From: Argopecten irradians
Taxonomy: Eukaryota > Mollusca > Bivalvia > Pectinida > Pectinidae
Direction: 5' to 3'
Assembly (NCBI RefSeq): GCF_041381155.1
Contig: NC_091137.1
Coordinates: forward strand, 18,335,655 to 18,399,654
Length of the DNA stretch: 64,000 bases
Shown: positions 2,812 to 49,400 of the stretch, piece by piece
How positions within the stretch are numbered: the first letter of the stretch is position 1
Layout of the letters: every line of letters starts with the position of its first letter
Translations under genes and position numbers: made by a program
The notes under the pieces: generated by a model
Seen by the model: only the letters and a program-made list of their open reading frames with translations
What the model was told of the DNA's origin: nothing
The model's database searches: none

Positions 2812-3832
2812 TGTTATGAAGGGTTATCAAGTTTGTTCAAATGAATGACCTTGATCTTCATTCAAGGTCACAGGGGTCAAAAAGGCTAATATCTTTAAAC
2901 AACTTCTTCTCAAGAACCAAAAGGCCCATGATACTCATATTGGGCCTGCAGCATACAGGGATGAAGTGCTACCAAGTTTGTTCAAATTAATGACCTTGAC
3001 CTTCATTCAAGGTCACAGAGGACAAAAAGGCTAAAATCTTTAAACGACTTCTTCCCAAGAACCGAAAGGCCCAGGATACTCATATTGGGCCTGCAGCATG
3101 CTGGGATGAAATGCTACCAAGTTTGTTCAAATTAATGACCTTGACCTTCATTCAAGGTCACAGAGGACAAAAAGGCTAAAATCTTTAAACGACTTCTTCC
3201 CAAGAACCGAAAGGCCCAGGATACTCATATTGGGCCTGCAGCATGCTGGGATGAAATGCTACCAAGTTTGTTCAAATTAATGACCTTGACCTTCATTCAA
3301 GGTCACAGAGGTCAAAAAGGCTAAAATCTTTAAACGACTTCTTCTCAAGAACCGAAAGGCCCAGGATACTCATATTGGGCCTGCAGCATGCTGGGATGAA
3401 ATGCTACCAAATTTGTTCAAATTAATTACCTTGACCTTCATTCAAGGTCACAGGGGTCAAATAGGCTAAAAACCTTTAAACAACTTCTTATGAATAACAA
3501 AGAGGCCTAGAGACCTGATATTGAGCCTGTGACATGCTTGGATGAAGGGCTATCAAGTTTGTTCAAATGAATGACCTTGATCCTCATTGAAGGTCACAGA
3601 GGCCAAATTGACTAAAATATTTTAAACTACTTCTTGAGAATAACTAGGAGGTATAGAGACCTGATATTGGGCCTGTGACATGCTGGGATGAAGGGCTACC
3701 AAGTTTGTTCAAATGAATGACCTTGATCTTCATTCAAGGTCACAGAGGTCAAATATGCTAAAATCTTTAAACGACTACGTTGTATTGTGCTAATAGTCAG
3801 ATGACCGTTAAGGCCCATGGGCCTCTTGTTTA
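2812..3832 (-). mobile_element. Tandem-core (pearl/Helentron-like) element with ~165-bp units
   Basis: Six or so tandem units of about 160-165 bp carry the phrase TGACCTTGACCTTCATTCAA followed by GGTCA. The right end, read on the minus strand, is AAACAAGAGGCCCATGGGCC followed by TTAACGGTCATCTGA. The same terminal module caps other tandem-core elements in this window (31943, 54826). Comparison with 27376-27831 shows the element is inserted into the Mutator-like backbone. Bivalve pearl elements are known for about 160-bp core repeats between conserved ends; the link to Helentrons is inferred from the 3' hairpins of the sister copies. Confidence 0.7.
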
Positions 3833-3904
3833 CTATGAGATAGTCCAGGGGCGTAGAGATCGTAGGTGATCGGAACCCCTGGAGTATCGAGGATGTGTAC
3901 AGTA

Positions 3905-6900
3905 CAGCACGTTCGATTTGTTTTGCGCGAGTTTAAACACAAGGACCTTAAGGAAGAAGTTAAATGTTGGTGGATGACAATAGTAATTGAAGCACAGCAG
4001 ACAACATTTTGTTGTTGAAAATCTGGACATGGCAAGAACGGCTATCCCAAGAGAAAATTTGATCTTGGGATGATGCGTGGCATACGTAATATATCTATAC
4101 AAAAAAAAATATAGGTAACCGGTCACTTGCGTCTTTTTTTAAATATTATTTTCCTACTTTCCACGTTATAACATATATAAAATGGCATAAATTTTTCGAT
4201 GTAATTGTCTGATTTTATATAAAACCGTATTTCCGATATGGAACTAGAGTTTGGAAGAAGAAAATAATTGATACAATGATAACAAAATGTATTTTTGACG
4301 ATTTAAAAATAATTAGGCCTAGCGGAAATATGTGCTAGATGACCAACTAAGCACTGGTAGGATGATCATCTCTGGTAAGTTTTCTATTTGTCTTAGAACT
4401 TGAATTTAGCTTTACCTATTCTATTTGTGAACACGCGACATTGTTATATCATGCCTTGTAGATTATAATGCTATTCTCAATCCCGGTTGCTTCATATGCT
4501 TTGTTATTAGCTTTAACTTTTTTTGTCGCAATAATTGCTCCTGAATTTTACTGCCCTTATCCGATAATTTGATAATTCCGCTTTGTTTTCAAAATGCCAT
4601 AGTAATTAGTTATACTTTTAATTAATATTTTGTAGTATTCTCGTGTTTCTGTTGATCATTTATTTTCATAAACATAAATACGCAAATGATGATTGTATTT
4701 CATGCAAAAAAAGTTTATCATGAAAGTCGTTTTTGTATCAGTCTTCAGATCTGCTGATTTTTCATAAAGAGTAATTTTTGTATAAGGCCGCAGAACTAAT
4801 TCTTTATAAGTACTAATTGTTTATACATAGTAGGTTTTGTACATAAGTCTTGTTGTATGTTTGTTTGTTTGTTTGTCAGATGGTGGGCTAATCAAATCGA
4901 CACTCGTCCGTCCGTCCTTCCATCCGTTTACAATTCTTGCCGACAAGCAGCCAGCTTGGATTTTGATAGTTGAAGTGAAGTTTGTTACTGGTATTTCTTA
5001 GAGAGAAGCAAAGGTTCTGTCTCAAATATCATTTTGTAGGTTTCTCTATAGGGCCGTAGTTGTGCATATTGCATTTGGGATCCGACCTGTCTACAAGGTA
5101 GCAAACAGGAATCTTGGAATTTAATAGTTGAAGTTTCGCACCCCAACTTTTCAGAACTATTGATTGTTTTTATGCAAAGTAGTTTTTGTTTATGTATTGT
5201 ATAAGTCACCAGACTTTTTTATTGTTTTATACAAAACAGTTTTTGTATGAGTCATCAGAAATATTGATTGTTTTTTATACAATGTAGTTTTGTATTAGTC
5301 CTCGGAACTATTTTTATTTGTATGTCTTCAGAACATTAAATTGATGTTTTTTAACACAAAAATTAACTCTATAAAAACATCCATCCTGTGTACAAACAAA
5401 AAGATTTACTTTACGAAAAAAAAACATCCATCCGATGTACATATACAACAAATCTACAAAAATTAACTCTACCAAAAAACATCCATAAGGTGTACAGACA
5501 AATCTACAAAAATAATTACCAAAGCATATATATATATATAATCATCTGTTTTCCCGCTATGGTCAAGGTGCTCGTCTGTATAGTAGGGATTATAGGGTCA
5601 GTATGTAGGACACGTATATACTGTTCCTATTTCTGTTCCGTACAAAAGCCCATTTGTTCTACTTTCATTCGCCTTCAAAGCCGACGTATTGAATACACTA
5701 GTATTAAGACTGTTGTATCCGTCCCATTTCCGATATTCACTTCACTTCCGTAACTTGTACCATTTACATTAAATATCCAAAAATCCACGTGATTCATATA
5801 TTACACGTTCAAACTTTTCATTGATGTTTCCTTAGTAATGTTTGTATTTTTGTCTCAATTAAAAATAATAAGTTCGATCTTAAATTAGATATTTTTTTGT
5901 TTTTAAGTAGTCGAATTAATTTTATACCTATTCAAATTAACCAAACATTATATTCGTTTATTCCATCGCTTATAGCTTCTTGTGTGTGATCGCAGCAGCT
6001 TGGATCATATAAGGACAATACTCAGTGATACAAATCATGATAGCATGGGAAAAGATAGCAACATATGGGCCCGATGACAAATAATGTAAATAGTAGTAGC
6101 CACTGTGGGTGGAAGTCAATTACAAGAAGAGTCAATTAAGTCAATCAGGGAAGTTTTAAAACATGTATTAAGGAAGCACTGACAACCAGGATGTAATGAC
6201 AACAGGTGTCAAAATACCAACAGCCAGAATCGTCTTAGGATGGTGTCAAGAGACGCATACAGTCATGATCAGGATACTTTATAAACATGCACCAATAGCC
6301 AGGATATTTTATAAGAAAGGTGTTAAAAGACAAATTCATTAAGGTTCATCATGTTATCAAGAAAACATCGACGGTCAGTATTTAACCTGACTCTAGCTTT
6401 TCGTGTTCCCTGGGGTATCGAGAAATCCAACAATCGGTCTCTGACGGAATATATTCTGATGTCCCCATATAGTCGTAATGTCTTATCCTACAAATAGCAC
6501 AGTGTTGCTTATATGAAATAGACACAGGCGGTCACGTGGGGATATGATTGAAATGTACAAAATACTTTCTGGAAAATACGATAAAGATGTTCAAATGTTG
6601 TTCAGTCTAGGACAGTTAAGCAATTTGAATATGAACTCGATTCACATTGGAAAAATCAGCCACTAAAGTATTTATACACTGAAAAAATAAATCCGTGAAT
6701 TTCTAAGAGCTGACTATTATAGGATTATAAAAAATCCTGTACATGTTAACATGTATGTTGTCAGAATAAATCTATGTATGTATCTATGATAATCCCACGT
6801 TGAATTGGTTATGTATTCAGTAGAATTCCCTAGCTATGTGTTGTCCTCATAAGGAAGATACTTGACTAAGTGGGTACATTCCTTGATATAAGTAGTAAAT

Positions 6901-7080
6901 GTCGTATGTATTCTTAATGAGAAGACTATTTGTAAACCGAATTCAGGTCCAGTATTTAATGACGTCACACAACATCCACTGTCTTGAGTGTTCTGGCGAC
7001 ATCATCTTCACATGTGAAAATTCAGGTCAGAGGTTATTATGTATGGAAACAAAACACGACAATAAGGCAAGAAAAATAAT
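3905..7080. other. Intergenic spacer between the PPT2-like gene and the GPCR
   Basis: No gene was recognised. The stretch 3910-4090 has a more even base composition and a short frame opening MARTAIPREN but no continuation. A repeat related to 42840-43905 lies at about 4865-5130, starting with a CAGATGGTGGGCTAATCAAA phrase. The rest is AT-rich. Confidence 0.5.
4715..5560. repeat. Degenerate ~60-65 bp tandem repeats
   Basis: The phrase 'TTTTTGTAT-A-GTC--CAGAA' recurs about every 60 bases from 4715 to 5345, interrupted by the dispersed repeat at 4865-5130. A second short array keyed by AACATCCATCC and TCTACAAAAAT follows at 5345-5520. Both are worn. A 121-aa frame at 5388-5753 runs through the second array and is not taken as a gene. 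Confidence 0.55.
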
Positions 7081-7288
7081 ATGTCTGTTTAGGGTTACTC
7101 GACCAACCCTAACTTTTTACCTCCGACCCTAATTTCTTTTCTACTTTTCCAGGAATAAAAATTAGTCGGGATTCCGATCTCGGATTCCGGTTCCGGCCAT
7201 TATTTTAGCGTGAAAGACACTAAAAACAAAAAAAATCCTCCCGACCTGCCGACCCTATTTTTCTGCCAATCTAACCCTAAACAGACAT
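7081..7288. mobile_element. Short MITE, 208 bp
   Basis: Inverted ends ATGTCTGTTTAGGGTTA and TAACCCTAAACAGACAT lie 208 bp apart. The middle is rich in CCGACCCTA phrases on both arms. There is no coding capacity, and the target duplication is uncertain because the flanks are AT-only. Confidence 0.65.
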
Positions 7289-7837
7289 AATTTTTGTTGG
7301 TCTAAATGCTCTTTAACAATTGGTGAATTTTACAGTACGATCACCCGCTAAAATGGTGTACAGTGTGCCATGTGTTTTACTTAAACATTGCAAGAAACAA
7401 ATAGATGCTATTTAAAAGCAGAAAGAGACCTTTTAACATCGTCTTGATTTACTTGTTTGATTTCCCCCCTTAATATTTGCCCAATTAATCTCGTACTATT
7501 TCATTGCATATCGCCTACTTGCCACCAATTGATGTTATCAGGAGATATCACTCGGAAAATGAAGATGATGATATTCTTACTTACAGTCAGTGTCAATCCG
7601 TATTTGGTCAAATACAAAAAAAAATGTTTTTATACCTATAGGTAGATATTGGGTGGTTTGTAATGGCTAAAACAATTAAGGTGTCTGAAATAAGTGATAT
7701 TTACAAAAAGAGAGTTTGGACAGTGTAACCGAGTTTGATGATTGCTGGTATACCTAATTGTTATATCTCTCGGTTGTCTTGTAACCTTATTATACAGCAG
7801 CTTTTCATTGGCGATATTCTTATGCACGAGTAAAACG

Positions 7838-7845
7838 TATATAAG
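7838..7845 (+). promoter_or_regulatory. Possible TATA box of the GPCR gene
   Basis: TATATAAG followed by AAGAGACGCG lies 318 bp upstream of the GPCR start codon, the only good TATA-like match in the preceding few hundred bases with a plausible leader length. No initiator was proven. Confidence 0.3.
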
Positions 7846-8162
7846 AAGAGACGCGTCACTTTAAGATGTATTGTCCAGTCGTGTATCCATACCAACTGCT
7901 ATGTTAAAGTGGGACACTAGTCCGTGCTTGTACACTTCAGCCTCAGAAAGCCACGGAGTATCATCTATACACGTACAGTATCTACAATATTACACGGATC
8001 ACTACGCGAGGATGTTTACCGAACAGTAGCGGCAGAGAAGATATGTGATTATCAACTAATATATGAATTATATTAATTTCTCCCGTGTCCTATTTTCAAA
8101 TTGTCTACATGAACCGATTGTTATTAGTAGTATTGTTATAAGCGAAATTATCTTACTCCGAA

Positions 8163-8345
8163 ATGGAAGAAGAACTCGATCCTATATTTCAACTGATTAT
8201 TAGCCGGGAGGTGGAGAAAGGCTATGTGAATTTCAGCACGGACGATCTGCTGAGCAGCCCATTGGAAAACTACCCTGTCCAGTCCATAATGTTCCTGGTG
8301 GCTCTTGTCATGTCCTGTATTGTGGGGATAGTAGGAAACACACTG
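8163..8345 (+). CDS. GPCR exon 1: N-terminus and TM1
   Basis: It codes for 61 residues, from MEEELDPIF to IVGIVGNTL. The donor CTG/GTAAGT gives phase 0. The acidic N-tail carries one N-glycosylation site and no signal peptide. Confidence 0.9.
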
Positions 8346-11300
8346 GTAAGTTTTCATTTATAATACTCTATCAACACGCAGTTGAACTATAGTTTTGTAA
8401 AACGTTCCTAAATCAACCTTAACTTCTCCATAAAAGGAAAACATTACAGAATCCCACCATTCCCACCATTTCTTGTTATTGTAAACTGTCTTTCGCGGCT
8501 ACTAAATTTCACGATTTTAGTTTCAAAGCTAACTCTTGGAGATTAATTTTCGCGGATTGAAAAGCTATTTGAATTTCCCTTCAATATTATGATACTAGTA
8601 CATCTAGTGAAAACATTCTTTCCCCGACCAGGTTACTCAAATATATTTTTATGAAGTTCATAACGATCAATGTTTTTAACGAAGTGATTTCCTTGGCCCC
8701 CATATGTTGGTGGTATCGATGTTATACTATATATTTATTGGTGGAGATAAACGTTCGCCTATTCACTCCGGTGGCGAAATTCGCAAAAATAGATAATACG
8801 CGAAAGAAAGTTTGTTTATAGAAATAAAATCCATAAAAGCAAAATGTATTGGTGATGTCAGATTGTATGCCAGATAAGTGTTTATTATATGAATTGGGGT
8901 TATGTCTCGATTACTGAATTAACCTGGTAAGTGATACATGGACGTCTTGCTAGACCTTGTTACATTCTTTATCAAGCTGTTGAGCAACCCACAAATGCAC
9001 ATGTACATGCAGTTTTTTATATTTTGCTTAAATTGTGTGTAAGTTAATGTTCTTTCTGTGAGTGTTATTTTCCGTTCTTTTAATATCAAGTCGTCCAAAT
9101 TGTAAACAATTGAATACATTCAAGTATTATTCACATGTCTATTTTAGATATATATACTCAATAAAGCGGATGTACTCGTCTTTATCTACTAATGATTACC
9201 AACAACATATGAGAATATATATTACATATCATGATATGTTCCAAAATATTAAACGGTGTGTAGAGATGGAAACACGGGTGAGAGGGGAGTATGGTATTGA
9301 ACACCCTTGGATATAGTTATCTATTGCTCTCAGCAAGCCAAGATGTTTTGCAAGGATAAACAAAAAAAGTAGCAACAAATTGCATTGCCAAGCAAATATG
9401 GCAAAGTAAGGATGAAAATTGATATAAATAAACCAATAAAAAGTTATTGGCAAGCGATGATGAAATTTTTAGTATGGAATGGGAATTTAGTTTGAAATTC
9501 CATTTAGTTTGAAATTCCCTTGCGGTGCGAAGATGACAAAGTACAGACAGGATGAAATGAAAATGAAGCATGAAATATCAATGGTCAAACAAAGTTGATT
9601 TGAGATTTTAGCATTAAGTACCGTTAGCAGGCGGAGGTGAAGAATATATAATGACAGTTTAATGTAGCAATAAAATTTCCATGGGAAAAATATGATAAAA
9701 TGAGAATTTAGTATTAAACACTACTGACAGCCTGAGGTGGGGAAAAGGTGAAGATTGGATGTAGCAATAAAAACCCATTGGAAATAGTATACATGTTGAG
9801 ATGGCGATAAAATGAGAATATAATATTAAATATCTTGCTTCCTGAGATAGGAAAAAGGCGAAGGTTAGATGTAGCAAAACCTCGGGAAGAGGAGATGGTG
9901 AGATGATAAGAGAATACCCCGTAATGAACAGATTGTTTTCATAGAACACCTTTGGCAAAGAAAGTAAAGAAATAAAATGGGAAGTTCAGTAAACGAATAT
10001 GTGATATACATACTCTATAATGATGAAGAAATAAAGCCTTATAGAATACCATTGGCTAGCAAAAATGGAGTAATAAACCACGGCAATATAGTACATGTAT
10101 TAAATAGCCTTGGCAAACGAAGAACGGAACCAAAAGAAAAAGAAACATTGTGGTTATCAGTTCTTGCCATAAAATTTTAAAGATGCTCCACCGCTGACAA
10201 AAAATATTTTTCTCAATCAAAAACAGGAACAGACATAGTATATATCTCCAGGTACAAAAGTTATTTACTTTACACCATTACCACCATTGAAAAGTTTGAG
10301 CTTACCATTGTCCTTCAAGATAAAAATATTGAAAAATAATTAATTGCATCCCGAAAAAATTTCGTGCTTCTATATCCTATATGGAATGAAATACTGATTG
10401 CACATGCACCCAAAGCAAAATGAATTATCTTATATTAATTTTTGTGTTATTTAGACATATAAATACACAATTAAACACCATTTATTGTTCAAATGATAGG
10501 TATCGTTTTTGCTCTGTCGGCGGTAGAGCATCTTTTAAGTCTTAACATATTGCATCAAAAGTGTTGGATGGGATGTCATCTATCTGACGGAAATAATAGT
10601 GAGAAAATATATTATTTCAGCAGTACTTGACTGAATGACGCATATAATTCAAGTACTACGAGACAATGTTTACAGTATCATATATGTTATTGACACGACA
10701 CAGCGGAGGTGTGAATCTATTTATCCTATTATGTATCACGTCTGAATCTGTTAGGTCATGCTAAAGTAAGTTAGAGTAAAGTGTCCCTATTTACATCCTC
10801 ATATAACAATCGTGTAGTTCCCCTCTCCCCATCCTCATGCACTTTCGTCAAGTCTCCCCCACTTCATTGTTGATAATCTTATAATAAAACACAAGCCATC
10901 CACTAACAAAACTTCCTTTTTGTAATTTCATCAGAAGTGATATTTTTGATGTACTTCCTGGAGTAAAAATAAACTATGCGTCATATTTCGAAGAATATAA
11001 ACTGTCCTGTTTTCATTCATAAGAAACTGTTCCATGAAGTGATTCAAGTACCTATGATATAATTGCCGATTTTCAGACATGCTCTTAAAATTTAAGCGAT
11101 GTTCGCGTTTCAGATATTCTTTCTGTCTTTACCCACTATGTTATCTTTGTGGGATTTCAGATTCGAAAGTCTAATGATGATGCATTATTTTTGTTGAAAT
11201 CTATCCAAATCTTTATACGTTGACGTACCATTGTCAAGTTTCATACATTCTATCGAAGTCTTCACAAACTGTTGCCGTGTTGATTAGGGTTTAGATATAC

Positions 11301-14300
11301 GATCAAAATGTTTTGATATTTTATATTTATGTTACATTTATTTTGACAATTCTTGATATGATATCCACTGAAGATATTGTATGGTGAACAAAGCATCACT
11401 CCATGGTTTTAGCAGATTTTGTTTTATTCTAACTCAATTCTGATGAACCAATTGTATATAAAGAACAATTCTTTATCTATAGATATTGAATTATTTCAAA
11501 AATTTATCTAACCTTGTAATTTTATGGAGATCGAATGGAAATATTTGTTGATGTATATGAAAGACAAAGACATATTATATTCGTTATTTACAGAAAAAAA
11601 GACAATTCATTACTTTACTATCGATTGATAGCAAGAACGCGCCCATTTAAAATGTCTGTTCTAAAACTGACTTGACAAATGACAGAAATTCCCATAAGCA
11701 ACTCTGCTTTTCATAAATGGTATAAAATGTTTCCAGTCTATAAATTACGATGACAAATCTTTATAAACAAAGAATTATATGTATATTGAAATAACAAATC
11801 ATTTCAACAAGTCTGCTATATATACAAATGACTCCATGCAATTAAAGATTGCGGTCTATACGTACAATTGTAACAAGTATATTTAAGGAATAGATTTTTT
11901 ACTTTGTTGAGGTTATGATGGTATAATGATAATGGAGCCCGTGTAAATTATCTAGTCCCTATATTTACAGTTTTTCACGTAAATGAATATTATTTATTCT
12001 CGCGGCAGTTGCATATTTTTTTTCATTAAATTACCCATATTTTTTCTCTCCCGTCATCGCCAACGAATTCGATTGAAGAGCTGATTGGAATCGAGTCATT
12101 CATATATTCCCACCAAAAGTGGGGTTGTGACCCCACGTTGCTACGCCAGCGACTATTCCCGTAACAATAGAATCGCTGCACGTGTTGTGCTATCATTATA
12201 CACTGATAATGATAATACATGTACTAGAAAGCATGGTTGTTGAGTCCATGTCAGTGCAAACTGTAAATATTTCTTTTTCATGCTATAACTAATTATATTG
12301 ATTTCTAGGTAATTGGTGCTGTGATTGTGAGTAAGCGACTAAGAACAACGGGGAATATGTTTATTGTGAATCTGGCCGTGGCTGACCTCATAATCGTCAC
12401 CATAGTGGAGCCCTTCAACATATTGGGTAAGTAGTCATACTGCGTAAGCTAGCATACTGGGTAAGTCAGCTTACTTAGTAAGTATACTGAGTAAGTCAGC
12501 ATATTAGGTAAGTCAACGTACTGGGTAAGTCGTCATACTAGGTAAGTCAACGTACTGGGTAAGTCGGCATGCTAGGTAAGTCAACGTACTAGTTAGACCA
12601 GCATACTGAGTAAGTCTCAGCATATTGAGACAGCATACTGAGTAAGTCAGCAAACTGAGTAAGTATACTGAGTAAGTGATTATAGTACATAATGTGATAT
12701 TATATGGTGTTATCGACGGTCCGTATTTCTTTGTCCAGAATGACAAATTTATGTGATATTTTATGGTGTTATCGACGTTCCGTATTTCTTTGTCAAGGAA
12801 TAACAAATTGATGTGATATCGGTGGTCCGTTTTGTCCGGAATAACAAATCAGTGTGATTTTTACAGGTGTTATCGATGGTCCGTATTTCTTTGTCCGGAA
12901 CGTCTGGTGGTGCCACACCCTGTCTGTCGTCTGCGTTATGTCATGTTCCTCGTCCATGATGAATCTTGCCGCCATTGCTGTGAACAGGTAAGTTTCGTTC
13001 AAATTTTCGGTTTCTGTCTGTGATAATTGCTTGTATAAGATACTCTAATTTGAATTTCTTCTCGCTCTGACAGCTGACTTTGAAACTGTCAAGATGTTAC
13101 TAAAAATCATGGTCCTTCATTATTTCCGGCTCTGTTGACAGTGTAAGACAATGTTGAGTTTCAACTGTTTAGTGTTACGTGTTTGAACCGTAAATTTTAC
13201 GTTTGAGAAATAACATAGGTATTGGTGAAAAAAGTCTTTCTGTTTGCCATTCCTGTATTCGCTTGTATTTAATCGAATTAAAGAAGTACGCCAGGTATGA
13301 AATCCATTTCACCCTATCTTATACGTCCATTTCACCCTATCTTGTATGTCCATTTCACCCTATCTTGTATGTCCATTTCACCCTATCTTGTATGCCCGTT
13401 TCACCCTATCTTGTATGTCCATTTCACCCTATCTTGTATGTCCATTTCACCCTATCTTGTATGTCCATTTCACCCTATCTTGTATGTCCATTTCACCCTA
13501 TCTTGTATGTCCATTTCACCCTATCTTGTATGTCCATTTCACCCTATCTTGTATGTCCATTTCACCCTATCTTGTATGTCCATTTCACCCTATCTTGTAT
13601 CCTTCCCTACTTGTATGTCCATTTCACCCTATCTTGTATGTCCATTTCACCCTATCTTGTATTCATTCACCTATCTTGTATGTCCATTTCACCAATCTTG
13701 TATGTCCTTTCACACCTAATCTTGTATGTCCATTTCACCCTATTCTTGTATGTCCATTTCACCATAATCTTGTATGTCCATTTCACCCTATCTTGTATGT
13801 CCATTTCACCCTATCTTGTATGTCCATTTCACCCTATCTTGTATGTCCATTTCACCCTTTCTTGTATGTCCATTTCACCATAATCTTGTATGTCCGTTTC
13901 ACCCTATCTTGTATGTCCATTTCACCCTATCTTGTATGTCCATTTCACCCTATCTTGTATGCCCATTTCGCCCTATCTTGTATGTCCATTTCACCCTATC
14001 TTGTATGCCATTTCACCCTATCTTGTATGTCCATTCACCCTATCTTGTATGTCCATTTCACCTATCTTGTATGTATATCGTATTTCACCATAATCTTGTA
14101 TGTCCTTTCGCCCTATCTGGTATGTCCATTTCACCCTATCTTGTATGCCCATTTCGCCCTATCTTGTATGTCCATTTCACCCTATCTTGTATGTCCATTT
14201 CACCCATCTTGCATGCCATTTCACCCTATCTTGTATGTGATCGTATGAGTAGAGTATGCATTCTCTTGTATGTTATAGAACCCTTACTTTCTTACATGTT

Positions 14301-17300
14301 TTAGGACAAACACTATCGTGTGTAGTAGCGCATGCATTGACTTGAATGTAAAACACGCACTCTCTTGTATGTTATAGAACCCTTACTTTCTTACATGTTT
14401 TAGGACAAACACTATCGTGTGTAGTAGCGCATGCATTGACTTGAATGTAAAACACGCACTCTCGTGTATGTTATAGAACATTCTTTTCCTGTATGTAATA
14501 TAACCAGAACTCTCGTTTGTAGAAGAACCCATACTTTCTTGTAGTTACAGAACCCTCTTTTCTTTATATCATCTTACCAACACTCTCGTACTAAGTATAA
14601 CCCATACTTTCTTGTATGTTAAGTACCCATATTTTCTTGTATGTTGTAGAACCCGTGTATATTATATGACCCTCCTGTAGGTTATATAAACTGCACTCTT
14701 TTGTGTAATACGACCAACACTCTCGTATGGAATAGAAACCATAATTTCTTGTACATAATCGTAACCATGCTCTTGTATTGTTATACTGTATGAAGTATCC
14801 GCCTCTGTAAAGTATAAATGTCCCGACCGATTTGCCGTTGTACTTACCATCTCATACTCTGTATGCTAAAACTGCACTCATTCTATATTACCTGTCCCGT
14901 CTCTGAATCCCGTGATAATTAACTTTGTGATGGAAAGGAATTATTTGCTACAGTATCTCAGGGACTAAGGACAAATTATAAGCCTAAGGTTTATGTAATA
15001 TATAATGTGTTAATACATTGACCGTGAGTTTGGAGTGTCTGCCAAATCCCTGTGTTCGGAAGTAGTCTTCTAGTTAATTGGTTTGTGTCTTATCTCTGGC
15101 GAGCGAGAGCTACCACAGGTGGTTGACGTAATGTTGTTATTTAGAGATATTTTATCGCTGTACATGTCATGAAAGATCCATTACGATGAATGTCAGTTTA
15201 TCAGTCAACTAAATTAATGAAATTTAATAATAGCATCAGAAGGATGAAATCCTGTAAACAATTCTACAGATACAGACGAATAAAAAAAACCTCTAGATTG
15301 GTCCTTTTTAAGCTATTTAAGGATATTTAATGATAGATTTCTAGTAGATTGTAATATACCATCGATTGGAGAGACAAGTGACAAGCTACATATATGTTTG
15401 ATTATTTGAACGTACATTCGCTTTCTGGCTCCAGGATCACGAAACAATCTTAGATTAAGTTAAACCTTAGCCAATCATTAATGAGGTAACTTTTTGTGAT
15501 GCCATCTTTGATTGGCTAAGTCTATGCTTAAGACAGTTTTAGTTTGATGATCCTTAGGCATGGATGACAATAGTTATTGTCATTTTGGCGGGTAATTCTT
15601 TATTCCGCTCATCTGTGCCTAATTACGTTACTTTGTGGAAAGTTTGTTTTTATGTCAGAAGAATGTTTACTATTAAATTATAATTTTTATGTAGATTTAT
15701 GTTTTTAAAGAAAATTGAATAAACGCGGTCATTTCAATCAGAGTTAAAGTATTGAGTATATGGTCTAGTGATGTCGACATATCTATCATCTCTTGTATTT
15801 CACATTCTAGACATTTTGTAAGAGGGGTGTACATGATGATCAAATCTAGAAATTTCTATAATTTTGCAGGTGGCGGACATAAGGTTATTTGAAATGAATC
15901 ATAGAGGAGATATTGTATATATCTAGATATTGGATAACTTGTTGTGAGAATGTGATAGGAGTGCTTTAAAATGTATCTCATCAGACAGTATTTCCGTTAA
16001 TAAGATACGAAGTTCACGGGACCAGCAGGCTTAGGTCGGTGTTGAGCGTCATTCTCCGAGTGTTCTCTTCCGATGGGAATCCAGAATCTAGAGCGTGTTT
16101 GTTTACTGACAATGACACACACATGGACGTGTCCTATATATTGTTTCACTCGCCATCAAGGAAGGTCAGGTCACATCTGTATTGGGGGTATAGCCGTAAT
16201 ATGTGTTTTGATAAGGAAGTACAGGTCAAATCGAGTTTTCCTTATTGTATCGCCTCACAATAGGATAGTTTTCCGACGGGCGTCGTCGTCAACGTGTAGG
16301 TTTTGCGTTTAGCTCTGTTTCTGAAACAGTAAAAGCAAACCAAATACCAAAATTTGAACATGAATTTATTAGGTCGAGTATCTGAGCTTTATTCACTAAA
16401 CAGCATATAATTTAACCATATTAGTCTAAATAAATCCTCAAAACACAATAATATAGTAATTGAGGTCAGTTAAGGTGTTCGAACTTGAAACCAATATAGA
16501 CCCATCTCGAGTCCAATACCTGATACTGACGGTAAATCGATGTTTTTTTTCCCTCTGGTACTCAGGTTTTCATCCTCTCAAACTGGCACTGTTACTGTAA
16601 CATAAAACAAAATTGACTTTAACTCAGAACAAAACAATGCAATGTTTTTTGGTTCTTTTTTTAATTTCCGTCAGTTTAGACAAAGGTTTGGTTTGGTTTG
16701 ATTTTTTATGTCCTATTAACAGCCAGGGTCTTACAAGAACTCATTTTTGTGTAATTTTAGGTAAAAAGTCACATTTTTCGATATTTCAATATAGGTTTTC
16801 TTTTGTTTTTACAGATACATCATGATCAACAAAAACCACTATTACAACCAGATTTTCACCAAAGGGAAAACACTCCTTCTCTGTGTTCTCGTCTGGTTCG
16901 TTGCGTTTCTCATCGAGCTGCCAAATCTGGCCGGATGGGGAGGACACACGTTTGATCTGAAAACCTTAGGATGCTCTTTCGACAGGCTTATCTCCCTTTC
17001 CTATACGATATTCCTTAGTGTGATGGCGCTGTGGCTGCCACTGATGGTCATCATGTTTTGCTATCTTAAGATTTATTTTTACGTGAAGAAATCAAGATTA
17101 CAGATGGAGAAACAGATGAAAACACAAACGAAAAAGGAAAAGAAGAAAAGTAAAAGACAACGCGATAATGTCAACTTAGCTAGGACATTTTTCATCGTTT
17201 TTCTTACTTTCCTAATCTGTTGGACGCCATATGACTTGACATTGTTTTTTGATCGTGGTGATCGCTGGCCGTCATGGCTGTACACATTATTTCTCCAAAT

Positions 17301-17529
17301 TGGCCATTTTAACAGCTCTCTGAACAGCATACTCTACGGGGCCACTAACAGGAACTTTCGCGAAGGTTACAAACAATTTCTGAGAAAGATCTGTTGTACA
17401 TGCAAGGTGACCATTGTAGTCAAGATAAGCGGAGACAAAAAGAACTCTTTGACGGACTCGAGTTCTGGATATTCAAGTACTACTGACAACGCACATCACA
17501 AAATTTATCCTGCCTCTCATTATGTCTGA
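8163..17529 (+). CDS. Class A GPCR, melatonin receptor-like (whole gene, four exons)
   Basis: Joining 8163-8345, 12309-12426, 12867-12987 and 16815-17529 gives one frame of 378 aa with seven membrane segments. Visible marks are an N-glycosylation site NFS at residue 23, GN in TM1, LAVAD in TM2, a Trp-Trp-Cys at the start of TM3, NRY (140-142) in place of DRY, a lysine-rich third loop (about 231-259), CWTPY in TM6 (276-280) and NSILYG (from 311) in place of NPxxY. A CC-x-C cluster follows helix 8. NRY with N-[AS]-x-x-Y-G and NFRE-Y after TM7 is the pattern of melatonin receptors, so a small-molecule, Gi-type receptor at the plasma membrane is likely; the ligand is not proven. A moody/Tre1-type orphan receptor is the main alternative. 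All introns have GT-AG ends. The length is normal for the family. Confidence 0.9.
8477..8825. mobile_element. Worn MITE in GPCR intron 1
   Basis: TAAACTGTCTTTCGCGGCTA on the left is mirrored by CGCGAAAGAAAGTTTGTTTA on the right, with CACGAT/GCGAAATTCGC blocks just inside. The inverted match is imperfect, so this is an old copy. Confidence 0.45.
9310..10170. repeat. Degenerate ~90-bp tandem repeat in GPCR intron 1
   Basis: The phrases GATAAAATGAGAATTTAGTA, TAGCAATAAAA and GGAAAAGGTGAAGATTGGAT recur with drift across this stretch. The frames of 60-100 aa here on both strands have no recognisable domain. Confidence 0.5.
10181..10533. mobile_element. TTAA-target MITE, copy 1 (GPCR intron 1)
   Basis: The ends are AGATGCTCCACCGC and its complement with one change, next to TTAA on the left and TTTAA on the right. 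The full length is alignable in reverse orientation to 62611-62966, which makes it a family. It has no coding capacity. A TTAA target points to piggyBac- or Kolobok-type mobilisation (inferred). Confidence 0.75.
10534..12308. other. Rest of GPCR intron 1
   Basis: AT-rich sequence with no repeat structure or conserved frame that I could recognise, up to the acceptor at 12307-12308. Confidence 0.5.
12309..12426 (+). CDS. GPCR exon 2: end of TM1, loop 1 and TM2
   Basis: After TTTCTAG the frame reads VIGAVIVSKRLRTTGNMF and then NLAVADLIIV, the TM2 signature with its conserved Asp. It ends one base into a Gly codon at G/GTAAGT (phase 1). An array of extra donors starts immediately downstream. Confidence 0.93.
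12427..12680 (+). repeat. Donor-site minisatellite at the start of GPCR intron 2
   Basis: Units of about 17 bp (catactGGGTAAGTcag and variants) begin at the authentic donor and continue for some 250 bp. GTAAGT occurs 13 times including the real donor, often preceded by G or AG, so most copies match the U1 consensus as well as the real site does. Confidence 0.85.
12706..12866 (+). repeat. Partial copies of the start of GPCR exon 3 inside intron 2
   Basis: GGTGTTATCGACGGTCCG at 12706 and GGTGTTATCGACGTTCCG at 12765 each continue into TATTTCTTTGTC, like exon 3 (GGTGTTATCGATGGTCCG at 12866). A third, shorter copy (GGTGGTCCGTTTTGTC) lies at 12821. They are separated by AACAAATTGATGTGATAT-type spacers and lack a good polypyrimidine/AG acceptor, so they are probably not used as exons. 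Confidence 0.85.
12867..12987 (+). CDS. GPCR exon 3: TM3 to the NR of NRY
   Basis: The acceptor TTTTTACAG precedes GTGTTATCGATGG. The exon codes for VIDGPYFFVRNVWWCHTL and on to NLAAIAVNR, with the TM3 Cys that should bond to extracellular loop 2. It ends at AAC AG/GTAAGT (phase 2). Partial copies of its 5' part lie just upstream in intron 2. Confidence 0.93.
13303..14245 (+). repeat. 23-bp minisatellite, about 40 copies, GPCR intron 3
   Basis: The unit is CATTTCACCCTATCTTGTATGTC. Because 23 is not a multiple of three and the unit has no stop in any plus frame, long frames of 140-300 aa with a 23-residue period appear in all three frames; they are artefacts. Units near 13600-13760 and 14000-14230 carry small indels. 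Confidence 0.95.
14262..14870 (+). repeat. 99-bp direct repeat and degenerate tail
   Basis: A 99-bp unit beginning TCTCTTGTATGTTATAGAAC is present at 14262 and 14361 nearly unchanged, with a partial third at 14460. Looser copies of 'ACCCATACTTTCTTGTATGT' continue to about 14870. It may share ancestry with the CTTGTATGT core of the neighbouring 23-bp array. Confidence 0.75.
15432..15556. mobile_element. 125-bp MITE in GPCR intron 3
   Basis: CAGGATCACGAAACAATCTTAG on the left mirrors the right end near TTTGATGATCCTTA. Inner arms CTTAGCCAATCA and TGATTGGCTAAG are perfect complements. A second copy lies at 27431-27563, inside another element. Confidence 0.75.
16815..17529 (+). CDS. GPCR exon 4: TM4 to C-terminus
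   Basis: The acceptor TTTTTACAG completes NRY. The exon carries TM4 (VLVWFVAFLIELPNLAGW), the loop-2 Cys, TM5, a basic third loop, TM6 with CWTPY, TM7 with NSILYG and an 80-residue tail that is Ser/Thr-rich (SLTDSSSGYSSTTD), a likely kinase and arrestin target. Confidence 0.95.
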
Positions 17530-43400: not shown

Positions 43401-46400
43401 AATTTTACATGTATGAGTACTTTGGTCCCAAGGCGTGTCATGCTGATTTTGAGACTGATCAGAAAAACAAATGGCCGCCAGGCAGCCATCTCAGATTTTG
43501 ATTGTTAAAGCTTATTACTGCTGTTTCTCAGAACGTTTTGAAGGGATCTTTCTCAAATTTCATATTATATGTATAGGTTCCCCTAAGGACCTTTGGCATA
43601 TTGTATTTTGGGCAGATCGGTCAACAAGATGGCCGCCAGGCAGCCATCTTGGAATTTGATAGTTTAAGTTTGTTACCGCTGCTTCTCATAAAGTACTAGA
43701 GGGATCTTTCTCAAATATCGTATTATATGTAGGTTCCCCTAGGGCCCTTGTTGTACATATTGCAGTTTGGGCAGATCGGTCAACAAGATGGCTATCAGGC
43801 AGCCATCTTGGATTTTGATAGTTTAAGTTTGTTACCGCGTTTTATCAGAAAGTGCTAAAGCGAAGTGTACTGAAGGAAACCTTCTGAAATTTGATACCAG
43901 TATTTGAATCAATAAAGTTGTATGTACATGTAATTTTGATATTGATTAGAAACCAAGATGAGCTTGCAGACTGCTAAAATGGAAGGCATTTTTAAAGAAC
44001 AAAACAAGATGGTAAAAATATAATGCAACCATCTTTGATTTTGACAATTTAAGTTTGTTGCTGTTATTTTTGTTAGCATAGTAAATATATAATATTGGGA
44101 CACTCAGATTGCAGGTAAAAGAAAAAACACAAAACAGAGCTAATTGGCTGGCTTCATTGCTTTTGTTAGAATTTTGGTTATCAAAGTTACTTAAGTCATA
44201 GATTTCTGCATGTATTTTAACCAAATTTGGCCACAAATATCATTGAGAGAAGTCCTGGGGGAACAGGAATATAGTTTATGTATAAATCTTGGCTATGACA
44301 CCTCTGGGGCAGAAGGGCAGAAGAGATGGGCCCAATAGGGGGAAATTGCGGTAAATCCTTTAGATTGCAACTGGTGATCATGGAGCTCTGCTTGGAATGT
44401 ATCCAAATTTGGCCATAAACATCCTATGGGGAAGGTAAAATTAGTTTGTATCAATTTTGACTCTCACCCCCTCCCTAGGGCAGGAGGGTTGGGGCCCAAT
44501 AGTGGAATATAGGCAAAACCTTTCAATGTTTTGTATCCACATTTTGCTTGGCTTTACATACCAGGTGATCAGCAATACAGGCCCTCTGGGCCTATTGTTT
44601 AATCTCTTTGTAGACTATAATATATATTAAGACTTAGGTTTAGTATGTTATTGATTGATTATGTTGAGACAAAATGGAAAAACAAAGAATAAAGTAGAGG
44701 AACAACTCAAATGGTCTTTTATTTGACTGATATATCTTAATTACTTAATTAGAAGACATTTTGAAAGTAAAGATACTTTTTTAGATATACACTTATATAT
44801 GCCCAGGAGGGCTGAAAACGTTAGCGACGAAATACTTATGTCATGAAGGTTATAATATATGTGTATATATAGAAAAAACAAAACTAAAACAAATCTGCGA
44901 TTGATCTCTAACGTTTTCCCAGCTGCCGTTGTTCTTCAGGAGATGTTTATTGATGTTGATAAGGCAACAACACAAATAATAAGGATTGATGACGTCATAG
45001 CAAACAATACACTATGACGTCATAAGATACACATATTAGAAGTCACACTTACAAATTAAACTGAACTATTTAGACCTGGTTTTAATAAAGCTATTAAATT
45101 CTTTTCCTTCTCTCTCAACAACATTCTCAGTAGATTGATAAATAGGAATAACATTAAAAACATCACTTGCACATGTATGAATGTGTTAACTGACATGAAG
45201 AAATCTTAAAGTGTCTGTCTTAATTTGTTGTCTGTGTACAGTAATCCGTTGCCGCAACTCATTACCAGTTTCCCCAATGTAGAACTCAGAACATTTACCA
45301 CATACAAGTGCATATATAACATTTTTTGATCGACAATTCATGTTTGATTTAATTTTTTGTGTGTGTATATATATATATACAAAGTATTTCAATTATATTT
45401 CTTCTTAAAAATTTGGTTGTTGTAGGCTGCTCCTGCTGTGCTGTGTCTAGGAACAATGTATTTTTATAATGACATGCAAAATGAGGAAAAGTTTTTAGAG
45501 GAACAAGTAAAAAAAGATCCAATTCCACTTCCTGCAAAGTAAGATATGTTTTCATTGTTAATTTTATAAAACATAATTTGCTTTTATATGTTGAATCTTG
45601 TACAAAATTCAGATCAAGTATATGTCTTAGTTAAGACCTCCATTCTCATCAGCAATGATCTTGAAATGTTATCAAAATTATTTTCTTTCCAATATATAGG
45701 TGTTTGGTGATTCACCATCATCTTATTCTAGCTTTTAGTGGTGGTGGTGGTGAACTGGTGATACATTACCTGGTGATGAACTGGTGACACAATTGTCTGA
45801 CCATCTAGATGGTGGTGAACTGGTGACACAACTGTCTGACCATCTAGGTGGTGGTGGTGAACTGGTGACACAACTGTCTGACCATCTAGGTGGTGGTGGT
45901 GAACTGATGACACAATTGTCTGGTGATGAACTGATGACTCAATTGTCTGACCACCTAGATGGTGAACTGGTGACTCAATTGTTTGACCATCTAAGTGGTG
46001 ACTGATAGTGAACTGGTGACACATCTGTCTGACCATCTAGATGGTGGTGGTGAACTGATGATACAATTGTCTGACCATCTAGATGGTGGTGAACTGGTGA
46101 CACAATTGTCTGACCATCTAGATGGTGGTGGTGAACTGGTGACACAATTTTCTGACCATCTAGATGGTGGTGGTGAACTGATGACACAATTGTCTGACCA
46201 TCTAGATGGTGGTGGTGAACTGGTGACACAATTGTCTGACCATCTAGATGGTGGTGGTGAACTGATGACACAATTGTCTGACCATCTAGATGGTGGTGGT
46301 GAACTGCTGACTCAATTGTCTGACCATCTAGATGGTGGTGGTGAACTGGTGACACAATTGTCTGACCATCTAGATGGTGGTGAACTGGTGACACAATTGT

Positions 46401-49400
46401 CTGACCATCTAGATGGTGGTGGTGAACTGGTGACACAATTGTCTGACCATCTAGATGGTGGTGGTGAACTGATGACACAATTGTCTGACCATCTAGATGG
46501 TGGTGGTGAACTGGTGACACAACTGTCTGACCATCTAGATGGTGGTGGTGAACTGATGATAGAATTGTCTGACCATCTAAGTGGTGCTGGTGATACAATT
46601 ATGTGACCATCTAGATGGTGGTGAACTGGTGACACAATTATCTGACCATCTAGGTGGTGGTGGTGAACTGATGACACAATTGTCTGACCATCTAGATGGT
46701 GGTGGTGAACTGGTGACACAATTGTCTGACCATCTAGATGGTGGTGGTGAACTGATGACACAATTGTCTGACCATCTAGATGGTGGTGAACTGGTGACAC
46801 AATTGTCTGACCATCTAGATGGTGGTGGTGAACTGGTGAAACAATTATCTGACCATCTAGATGGTGGTGGTGAACTGGTGACACAATTGTCTGACCATCT
46901 AGATGGTGGTGGTGAACTGGTGACACAATTGTCTGACCATCTAGGTGGTGGTGTGGTTGGTGACACAATTGTCTGACCATCTAGATGGTGGTGGTGAACT
47001 GGTGACACAATTGTCTGACCATCTAGATGGTGGTGGTGAACTGGTGACACAATTGTCTGACCATCTAGATGGTGGTGGTGAACTGATGACACAATTGTCT
47101 GACCATCTAGATGGTGGTGGTGAACTGATGACACAATTGTCTGACCATCTAGATGGTGGTGGTGAACTGGTGACACAATTGTCTGACCATCTAGATGGTG
47201 GTGGTGAACTGATGACACAATTGTCTGACCATCTAGATGGTGGTGAACTGGTGACTCAATTGTCTGACCATCTAGATGGTGGTGGTGAACTGATGACACA
47301 ATTGTCTGACCATCTAGGTGGTGGTGAACTGGTGACACAATTGTCTGACCATCTAGATGGTGGTGGTGAACTGATGACACAATTGTCTGACCATCTAGAT
47401 GGTGGTGAACTGATGACACAATTGTCTGACCATCTAGGTGGTGGTGAACTAGTGACACAATTGTCTGACCATCTAGATGGTGGTGAACTGATGACACAAT
47501 TGTCTGACCATCTAGGTGGTGGTGAACTGGTGACACAATTGTCTGACCATCTAGATGGTGGTGAACTGGTGACACACTTTTCTGACCATCTAATTTGTGT
47601 ATGATTGGTGATACAATTGCCTGACTATCTAGATGGTGTTTAATTTGTGATACAATTTTCTGACCATCTAGATGGTGTTTGATTGGTGATACAATTGTCT
47701 GACCATCTAAGCAAAGGGAGGACAGTCCACAGATGACCTTACACTTTTATGCATTTTTCCAAATAAATGTAACAAAGAGGCACTGAGATGTAGGATATAT
47801 CATTAGGGGTTGTCTCCTAGGAAAAGGTAATATTGTCCTTTGTGTTGGTAATCTGCTTTAGAATGCTGCATGAAGCTCTTAGTCTCATATTTATGTTAAT
47901 ATACAAACCAGTGTAGGATTTCTATAGACTAGTAAGGTGACAGTATTTGTACTGTATAACTGCTGAGATAGACCAGAGAGAAAAAAACGACCTTAAATCT
48001 GTTTTCATATTTCAGTACACAGCACCTTAATAATGAAGAAATGAGGTTCAGACGTATAAAAGTGATTGGCAAGTTTGATCATACCATGGAAAGATACATT
48101 GGTCCAAGAAGATATCTAAAATCAATAAAAAAAGATTATAGAATCATAAAAAAGACTGAAGGACTAGGGATGTTGGTTGTTACCCCTTTTACTATTAAAG
48201 ACACTGGGTAAGTTGTAATGACCATCACTTGGTAGAATACCAATGGATTTTGAAGAAATTAATTAAAAATTTTAACTGATTAAAGAGAAGACGCTATTAA
48301 GCAGATTCCATTCAAAACATTTTAAAAATTTGACTAAAATTTTAAATGTTCTCAACATAAAGAAATGTTGAAAAGATGATACCTGACAGTTGATAATAGT
48401 TTTCCATTTTGAAAAGACAATACCTTACAGTTGGTATAATAAGAGGTCATATCTTTTACCCGAGACCTCTTCAATTAGATAGAATTTTTACTATAGGTTT
48501 GAGTACCATTGAATCCCTTGTGGAGTGACAGTGTTATCCCTATTAATCAGGTATACAATCTGATACCTCTATTATGATTATAGAACTAAATTAATTGACT
48601 CTCTTTCCAGACAAAGGATTTTGATTAACAGAGGTTGGGTATCATCTGACCGACAGAATTCCAACTCACGATTGGAAGGACAGGTAACAGTTTTTAGCTC
48701 ACCTGGCCCGAAGATCTGGTGAGCTTATTGTCATGGTGCAGTGTTCGTTGTCCTTCCGTCAGGCAACATTTCCTTTAAATTTGGCAAAAAATTTCTTGTG
48801 GAAAGTGGAACAGAGTTTGTGTAAATTTTGGCTCCGACTCCATGGGGGCAGGATTGGCAGGGCCCAATAGGGAAATAGAGGTAAATCTGAAAATCGCTTC
48901 TAGTCATAGAGTTCTGTATGGATTTTAACCAAATTTTGACAGAAACATCCTCTGGGGAAGGGGAACAGAGTTTGTATAATTTTTGGCTCTGACCCACGGA
49001 GGCAGGAGGGGTGGGTCCAATAGGGGTATTAAAGGTAAATCTTTAAATCGCTACTAGTCATAGAGTTCTGCGTCATTGTAACCAAATTTGGCCAGAAACA
49101 TCCTCTGAGGAAGGGGAACAGAATTTGAATAAATTTTGTCTGTGATCCCCTGGAGCAGAATGCGGTGCCCAATAGGGAAATCAGAGGTAACCATTTAATT
49201 TAAATTCCTTCAGAAAAGAAACAATAAACCTGTATACCTTGGCATTACAAACCAGGGGAGCGATACTTATTACAATACAAAGGTAATATTTCTTCATGTG
49301 AAATTCACATGAAGGCCATTTCATGTGAATTGTATGTCACATTCACGTGAAGAAATATTGCCTGTATAGGGGTACAGGCTTAAAGGGATGGTTATCTTTT

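What the first reader, a model, noticed from the sequence alone, without database searches (positions are those of the whole stretch)
12421..12680. Thirteen tandem U1-type splice donors at one exon end
The minisatellite that opens GPCR intron 2 is built from the donor itself: GTAAGT occurs 13 times, the first being the authentic site. If the later copies compete, they would extend exon 2. If not, they show that exon definition tolerates a dozen strong decoys. Either outcome tells something about 5' splice site choice.
Basis: partly seen in the sequence, partly recalled or inferred. Interest (0 to 1): 0.75.

Follow-up and report, generated by a model that had tools for sequence, protein, structure and literature searches.

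The report
Intron made from its own edges
A short intron in a receptor gene of an unnamed animal has grown by stuttering copies of both of its own exon edges, leaving a dozen extra "cut here" signals that would wreck the protein if used; similar structures were described before in lancelets and one human gene.

Summary
In detail: 13 GTAAGT lie in 12427-12677, the first being the donor of intron 2 of a melatonin-receptor-like GPCR gene. The 17-bp unit spans the junction: 12 exonic nt plus the donor. The 3' part of the intron holds three copies of the acceptor edge, each with about 30 nt of exon 3 but without its AG. About 426 of 440 intron bases are junction sequence or copies of it.

The intron is old: three paralogs share its place and phase. 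Both arrays are local. This is secondary expansion, not intron birth. All 12 extra donors would keep a TAG at 12432-12434 and give a 102-aa product, a likely NMD target. Best reading: the first donor is used, the rest are tolerated or leak into NMD. No transcript could be examined.

The structure matches amphioxus "mirages" (PMC3087553), reported not to disturb splicing, and resembles human IFI6: a new member of a known kind. Such arrays recur here: 6 of 69 junctions tested, 2 of 56 outside the window, including an EGF exon followed by 21 further donors. In three acceptor arrays the nearest copy has lost its AG.

The parts
8163..8345 (+). GPCR exon 1 coding part (ATG to phase-0 donor GTAAGT at 8346)
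   Evidence: open frame and join
12309..12426 (+). GPCR exon 2, phase-1 end; last 12 nt (12415-12426) are copy 1 of the donor array
   Evidence: same exon end in paralogs
12427..12432 (+). authentic donor GTAAGT of intron 2 (first of 13)
12432..12434 (+). in-frame TAG retained if any later donor is used
12415..12677 (+). donor-edge array: 16 units, 13 of them 17 bp (TCAGCATACTGGGTAAG); 13 of 15 downstream units keep GTAAG, 12 keep GTAAGT
12692..12852 (+). acceptor-edge array: three copies carrying 29-34 nt of exon 3, two of them with the preceding intron end; AG replaced by TG, TG and a deletion
12840..12866 (+). likely working 3' splice site: branch-like AATAAC (A at 12844, 22 nt before the intron end), then TTTTTACAG; AG at 12865-12866
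   Evidence: branch point is inference
12427..12866 (+). intron 2, 440 bp, phase 1
12867..12987 (+). GPCR exon 3 (ends ...AVN plus two bases of R), source of the acceptor-edge copies
16815..17529 (+). GPCR exon 4 (to stop)

Best explanation
Intron 2 is an old intron that has been rebuilt by local tandem duplication of both of its own exon-intron edges, a 'mirage'. A 17-bp segment straddling the donor was copied some 15 times into the intron, and a segment of about 59 bp straddling the acceptor was copied three times. Splicing most likely still joins 12426 to 12867. The first donor is favoured because it adjoins exon 2 and its enhancers, and also has the strongest U1 pairing in the array. The downstream donors are mostly ignored, and any use of them gives a stop-bearing mRNA destroyed by NMD. 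On the acceptor side the upstream copies are harmless because they no longer carry an AG at the old splice position. Shown: anatomy, shared intron position, locality, the stop codon, the AG loss. Inferred: which donor is used, exonic enhancers, NMD, and selection against upstream AGs.
For: 13 GTAAGT, units in register. Exonic 12 nt belong to the repeat. Three acceptor-edge copies without AG. The same phase-1 intron in three paralogs, whose 8 junctions tested show no such arrays. Unit words found elsewhere no more than by chance: 4 of 8 genome hits for a 16-mer are here, the other 4 single, against 7 for the reversed control; 3 of 3 hits for a 21-mer are here. Every downstream donor gives a 102-aa frame. 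Amphioxus mirages are reported not to disturb splicing (PMC3087553, section 16 read; PMC3902484, one passage).
Against: No RNA evidence at all. Three decoys (12508, 12542, 12576) match the 9-nt donor consensus better than the authentic site. In the human IFI6 gene, two downstream repeat donors are actually used (PMC4526556, passage), so decoy silence cannot be assumed. SRSF1 is reported to favour intron-proximal sites when donors compete (PMC5585400, passages), which would favour the last decoy. For the age of the intron: many more distant GPCR matches in this genome cover the position in one open frame, i.e. without an intron there (e.g. C11:14699290 and C10:35651427, both scoring above the C12 paralog), so intron presence is not universal.
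Confidence: 0.75

Rival explanations
1. Functional decoy array: several donors compete, and the share of transcripts diverted to the stop codon sets receptor output through NMD, so array length tunes expression.
For: 3 of 12 decoys match the U1 consensus better than the authentic site and 3 equal it. Every decoy gives the same NMD-type product. GTAAG is the best-kept part of the unit (0.95 v 0.79). IFI6 precedent for real use of repeat donors.
Against: GTAAG being best kept is only the best of 17 possible five-column windows of the unit (my reading of the column values), weak on its own. The authentic site has the best duplex energy. Amphioxus cases are reported without aberrant mRNA. No RNA data.
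Confidence: 0.15
2. Intron birth or recent gain by tandem genomic duplication of coding sequence (Rogers model).
For: Nearly the whole intron is made of edge sequence and its copies. Many more distant GPCR matches in the genome lack an intron at this position.
Against: The two best-scoring paralogs (C9, C5) and a third (C12) have the intron at the same codon and phase, so the position predates the arrays.
Confidence: 0.03
3. Chance: in a genome full of minisatellites one containing GTAAGT happened to abut a donor.
For: GTAAGT triplets are common in this genome: 54,874 places, against 20,638 to 51,697 for seven other hexamers of the same composition, so GTAAGT arrays are not special.
Against: The exonic 12 nt belong to the unit, unit words occur elsewhere no more than by chance, and the acceptor edge is copied too. 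The array grew from the junction; it did not land beside it.
Confidence: 0.05
4. Assembly or sequencing artefact.
For: No second allele of intron 2 was found in the assembly to confirm it; the haplotype-like contig C900 diverges at window 11822.
Against: Copies differ from each other, and the longest exact repeat is 28 bp. Independent boundary arrays occur at other junctions.
Confidence: 0.02

Closest known systems
Amphioxus 'mirages' (Adh3, globins BflGb6/BflGb9, TnC, PGBD5)
   Same: Minisatellite-like tandem duplication of exon-intron boundaries, at 5' or 3' edges; copies diverged (81-100% identity in BflGb6); many but not all copies keep AG/GT; units from 10 to 160 bp (PMC3087553 section 16). 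PGBD5 has repeats at both 5' and 3' splice sites (PMC3902484 passage).
   Different: Different gene and very probably a different phylum (recalled grounds). Here copies of the two edges of one intron fill nearly all of it; whether any amphioxus case does so was not seen. No copy in the acceptor array keeps its AG. RNA evidence exists there, not here.
Human IFI6 (G1P3, 6-16) minisatellite with multiple splice donors (Turri, Cuin, Porter 1995; not held, title seen in reference lists)
   Same: A minisatellite at an exon end that supplies several splice donors (unit size and copy number recalled, not read).
   Different: In IFI6 two downstream repeat donors are used and encode isoforms (PMC4526556 passage); here every downstream donor gives a stop.
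[quoted passage not shown] review PMC3443670, passages)
   Same: Tandem duplication across an intron-exon boundary that carries splice signals with it.
   Different: There a new intron results; here an old intron grows and the predicted coding sequence is unchanged.

Membership tests
Mirage (boundary-derived minisatellite) | tandem repeats whose unit spans an exon-intron boundary | tested here: met
   (local alignment scores 29 and 57; 0 of 200 shuffles reach either)
Mirage (boundary-derived minisatellite) | many but not all copies keep GT/AG | tested here: met
   13 of 15 downstream donor copies keep GTAAG; 0 of 3 acceptor copies keep AG
Mirage (boundary-derived minisatellite) | regular splicing not disturbed | not testable with these tools
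   no transcripts available
Mirage (boundary-derived minisatellite) | length instability between haplotypes or individuals | not testable with these tools
   no second allele of intron 2 found: one genome match; the part of C900 read covers window 3096-11822 only
IFI6-type multiple-donor minisatellite | downstream donors encode alternative protein isoforms | tested here: not met
   all 12 downstream donors retain TAG, 102-aa product
Intron gain by tandem duplication | intron absent from close relatives | tested here: not met
   same phase-1 intron in 3 of 3 intron-bearing paralogs examined, including the two best-scoring; more distant matches without an intron there exist and were not examined further
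Rhodopsin-type GPCR (host gene) | 7tm_1 domain above curated cut-off | tested here: met
   159.8 bits v cut-off 30.5; best solved relative is melatonin receptor type 1A, E 3.6e-43

The most novel reading that the evidence does not exclude
Edge-derived arrays are a widespread, ongoing class of mutation in this genome, and their decay is directional. Upstream acceptor copies are purged of AG (nearest copy in 3 of 3 arrays; 2 of 8 copies keep AG), while downstream donor copies often stay intact (13 of 15, 2 of 5 placed, and 21 GTAAGT in an array of about 25.6 copies). That is the mark expected if 3' sites are chosen by scanning to the first AG and 5' sites by the exon. Some arrays could add protein repeats: at C4:8156650-8157773 the 45-bp unit is open in frame, and 7 downstream donors in register with the first precede the first stop, so each could add multiples of 15 residues to an EGF protein.
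Probability: 0.3. Interest if true: 0.75.

Novelty: new member of a known kind. Interest (0 to 1): 0.5.

Why it matters
These arrays are natural splice-site competition experiments: near-identical donor modules placed mostly 17 or 45 nt apart in an endogenous gene, with (for this gene) an all-or-none readout, receptor or stop. If their splicing is clean, exon context overrides a dozen decoys, some of them equal or better by consensus. If not, repeat length becomes an expression dial. Their recurrence here suggests that 'mirages' may not be an amphioxus oddity but a more general route by which introns grow and new splice sites are tried.

Tried and rejected
GTAAGT-specific seeding of minisatellites: not supported. 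GTAAGT triplet arrays (54,874 places) are the most frequent of 8 hexamers of the same composition but lie close to the next ones: 51,697 GTGTAA, 50,842 TGTAGA, 38,540 TGGTAA, 37,777 AATGGT, 36,337 AGATGT, 33,331 AATGTG, 20,638 TGAATG (both strands summed, overlapping starts counted).

Dispersed satellite insertion: rejected. Intron birth in this gene: rejected. Second allele: not found; C900 is 98.5-99.3% identical to window 3096-11822, then without a match to the rest of the window over the 20 kb read of its 24.4 kb.

Junction survey: a 40-nt block over each junction was aligned to up to 1500 nt or 800 nt of its own intron and compared with 200 shuffles in blocks of two bases. At the cut (at most 1 of 200 as good, at least 12 exonic nt aligned) 7 of 69 junctions pass. 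One, the acceptor at C4:8156523, was dropped because its 'copy' is the start of a neighbouring EGF coding stretch, leaving 6. Near misses not counted: GPCR intron 3 acceptor (2 of 200), EGF 60274 acceptor (1 of 200 over 1500 nt but 184 of 200 over 800 nt, which is the one counted), C12:14969250 donor (1 of 200 but only 6 exonic nt). EGF exon ends were called automatically and some may be wrong; junctions without a recognised site were skipped: 1 donor in the window, 3 donors in C10, 4 donors in C12, 1 acceptor in C4:8.15 Mb.

An exon 2 stretch (12397-12408, seen) resembles the array unit, but residues there are shared with the C9 paralog without length change, so no duplication inside the exon is claimed.

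Full report
WHAT IS THERE. The window holds a four-exon rhodopsin-type GPCR gene (coding exons 8163-8345, 12309-12426, 12867-12987, 16815-17529; 378 aa), Pfam 7tm_1, nearest solved relative melatonin receptor type 1A. GTAAGT occurs 13 times at the stated place. Cut at GTAAG, the array is 16 units, 13 of them 17 bp, consensus TCAGCATACTGGGTAAG; 13 of the 15 units downstream of the authentic one keep GTAAG and 12 keep GTAAGT. The first unit is the end of exon 2 itself: its 12 exonic nt match the consensus at 10 of 12, which 5 of 63,677 other + strand positions of the window do.

THE OTHER HALF. The 3' part of the intron (12692-12866) consists of the opposite edge and copies of it. Three copies (12693-12740, 12752-12794, 12813-12841) carry 29-34 nt of exon 3 (around GTGTTATCGAYGGTCCGTATTTCTTTGTCC, shortened in the third) and, in two of them, the preceding intron end. 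At the splice position the real site has AG; the copies have TG, TG and a deletion. Together the two stretches make up about 426 of 440 bp (12427-12677 and 12692-12866; both figures include the working sites themselves). A local alignment test of each junction against its own intron gives 0 of 200 shuffles as good for both ends of intron 2, but not for the four ends of introns 1 and 3 (the intron 3 acceptor is a near miss, 2 of 200).

ORIGIN. Three paralogs on contigs C5, C9 and C12 have an intron at the same codon and phase, with donors GTAAGT, GTGAGT and GTAAGT; none of their 8 junctions tested shows edge copies. C9 and C5 are the two best-scoring paralogs in the genome. Many more distant GPCR matches lack an intron there, as single-exon GPCRs do, but sharing by the closest ones means the intron is older than the arrays. 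A 16-nt unit word has 8 places in the genome, 4 here and 4 single ones, against 7 for the reversed control. A 21-nt word of the acceptor unit has 3 places, all here. So the arrays are local duplications of the junctions.

CONSEQUENCE OF DECOY USE. The frame runs G|GT AAG TAG, so each of the 12 downstream donors would leave a stop at 12432-12434, a 102-aa product and a stop 147-358 nt before the last exon junction. By established NMD rules these would be degraded (inference). Against the consensus CAG|GTAAGT the authentic site has 7 matches, 3 decoys have 8, 3 have 7 and 6 have 6. By duplex energy with the U1 5' end the authentic site is best (-11.9 v -10.5 kcal/mol for the best decoys). The authentic donor is the intron-distal one; SRSF1 is reported to favour intron-proximal and hnRNP A1 intron-distal donors (PMC5585400, passages), so clean use of 12427 would need the exon context to win.

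HOW COMMON. In the same window an EGF gene on the minus strand has two more edge arrays: the donor edge of the exon ending at 60146 is copied downstream (one copy, 59743-59672, keeps GCACAG|GTAGGT), and the acceptor edge of the exon starting at 58041 is copied upstream (nearest copy with AG lost). Over all junctions tested, 6 of 69 are accepted: GPCR gene 2 of 6, window EGF gene 2 of 7, GPCR paralogs 0 of 8, EGF exons on C10 0 of 17, on C12 0 of 18, at C4:8.15 Mb 2 of 13. The window was picked because it holds one, so the fairer figure is 2 of 56 outside it. One of those two, C4:8156650-8157773, has 22 GTAAGT in a 45-bp array after an EGF exon. Of the 21 downstream sites, 20 read CAG|GTAAGT (perfect consensus) while the first reads CAA|GTAAGT; the exon's frame runs on to a stop at 8157279, with 7 downstream donors in register with the first and 4 out of register before it. 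GTAAGT arrays as such are not special in this genome.

DIRECTION. In the three acceptor arrays the nearest upstream copy has lost AG each time (a deletion in the GPCR, AT at EGF 58041, CA at C4); over all copies 2 of 8 keep it, the farthest copy in two of the arrays. Donor copies keep GT in 13 of 15 (GPCR), 2 of 5 that could be placed (EGF), and at 21 downstream GTAAGT in the C4 array of about 25.6 copies. Copies within an array are not independent, and the EGF donor array goes against the trend, so this is a hypothesis: AG scanning would punish upstream acceptor copies, while exon-anchored donor choice would spare downstream donors.

KNOWN KIND. Tandem repeats spanning exon-intron boundaries are known as 'mirages' in amphioxus Adh3, globins, TnC and PGBD5, and are reported not to disturb splicing although many copies keep splice signals (PMC3087553 section 16; PMC3902484 passage; the original 2002 paper is not held). 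Human IFI6 has a donor minisatellite whose downstream donors are used (PMC4526556 passage; the 1995 paper is not held). In ten literature searches no listing showed such arrays in a mollusc, but only titles and abstract starts were seen for most hits, and only one search named bivalves and one molluscs.

THE ORGANISM is not established. The genome is 845.8 Mb with contigs up to at least 73.6 Mb and at least 150 C1q domains above the cut-off (150 of 241 candidates scored). From recalled knowledge this suits a bivalve and does not suit amphioxus.

Noticed in passing
L070 / G000:C4:8156650-8157773: EGF exon end followed by a 45-bp array with 22 GTAAGT; 20 of the 21 downstream donors are perfect CAG|GTAAGT while the presumed authentic one is CAA|GTAAGT; frame open to 8157279. 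A stronger test case than the finding itself.
   Followed up: partly
L070 / G000:C4:8160482-8160676: Acceptor-edge array upstream of an EGF exon; the nearest copy is 29 of 31 identical to the real edge, the two differences replacing AG by CA.
   Followed up: partly
59672-60197 (minus strand): Donor-edge array of an EGF_CA exon (60274-60146) in the same window; one copy keeps an intact CACAG|GTAGGT.
   Followed up: yes
58022-58164 (minus strand): Acceptor-edge copies upstream of the EGF_CA exon starting at 58041, nearest copy with AG lost.
   Followed up: yes
13303-14238: 41-copy, 23-bp minisatellite in intron 3 of the same GPCR gene (TCCATTTCACCCTATCTTGTATG).
   Followed up: no
3096-11822 v G000:C900: Haplotype-like contig 98.5-99.3% identical up to about 490 bp before exon 2, then no further match to the window in the part read: a structural variant or partial gene copy.
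   Followed up: partly
window, 37 TRF rows: The region is very rich in tandem arrays (periods 4-335 bp), e.g. 45921-47709 (42 bp) and 50839-52069 (69 bp).
   Followed up: no
G000:C3:57813258-57822366: Seven EGF_CA hits of nearly equal score spaced about 1,498 bp, apparently a tandem exon amplification.
   Followed up: no
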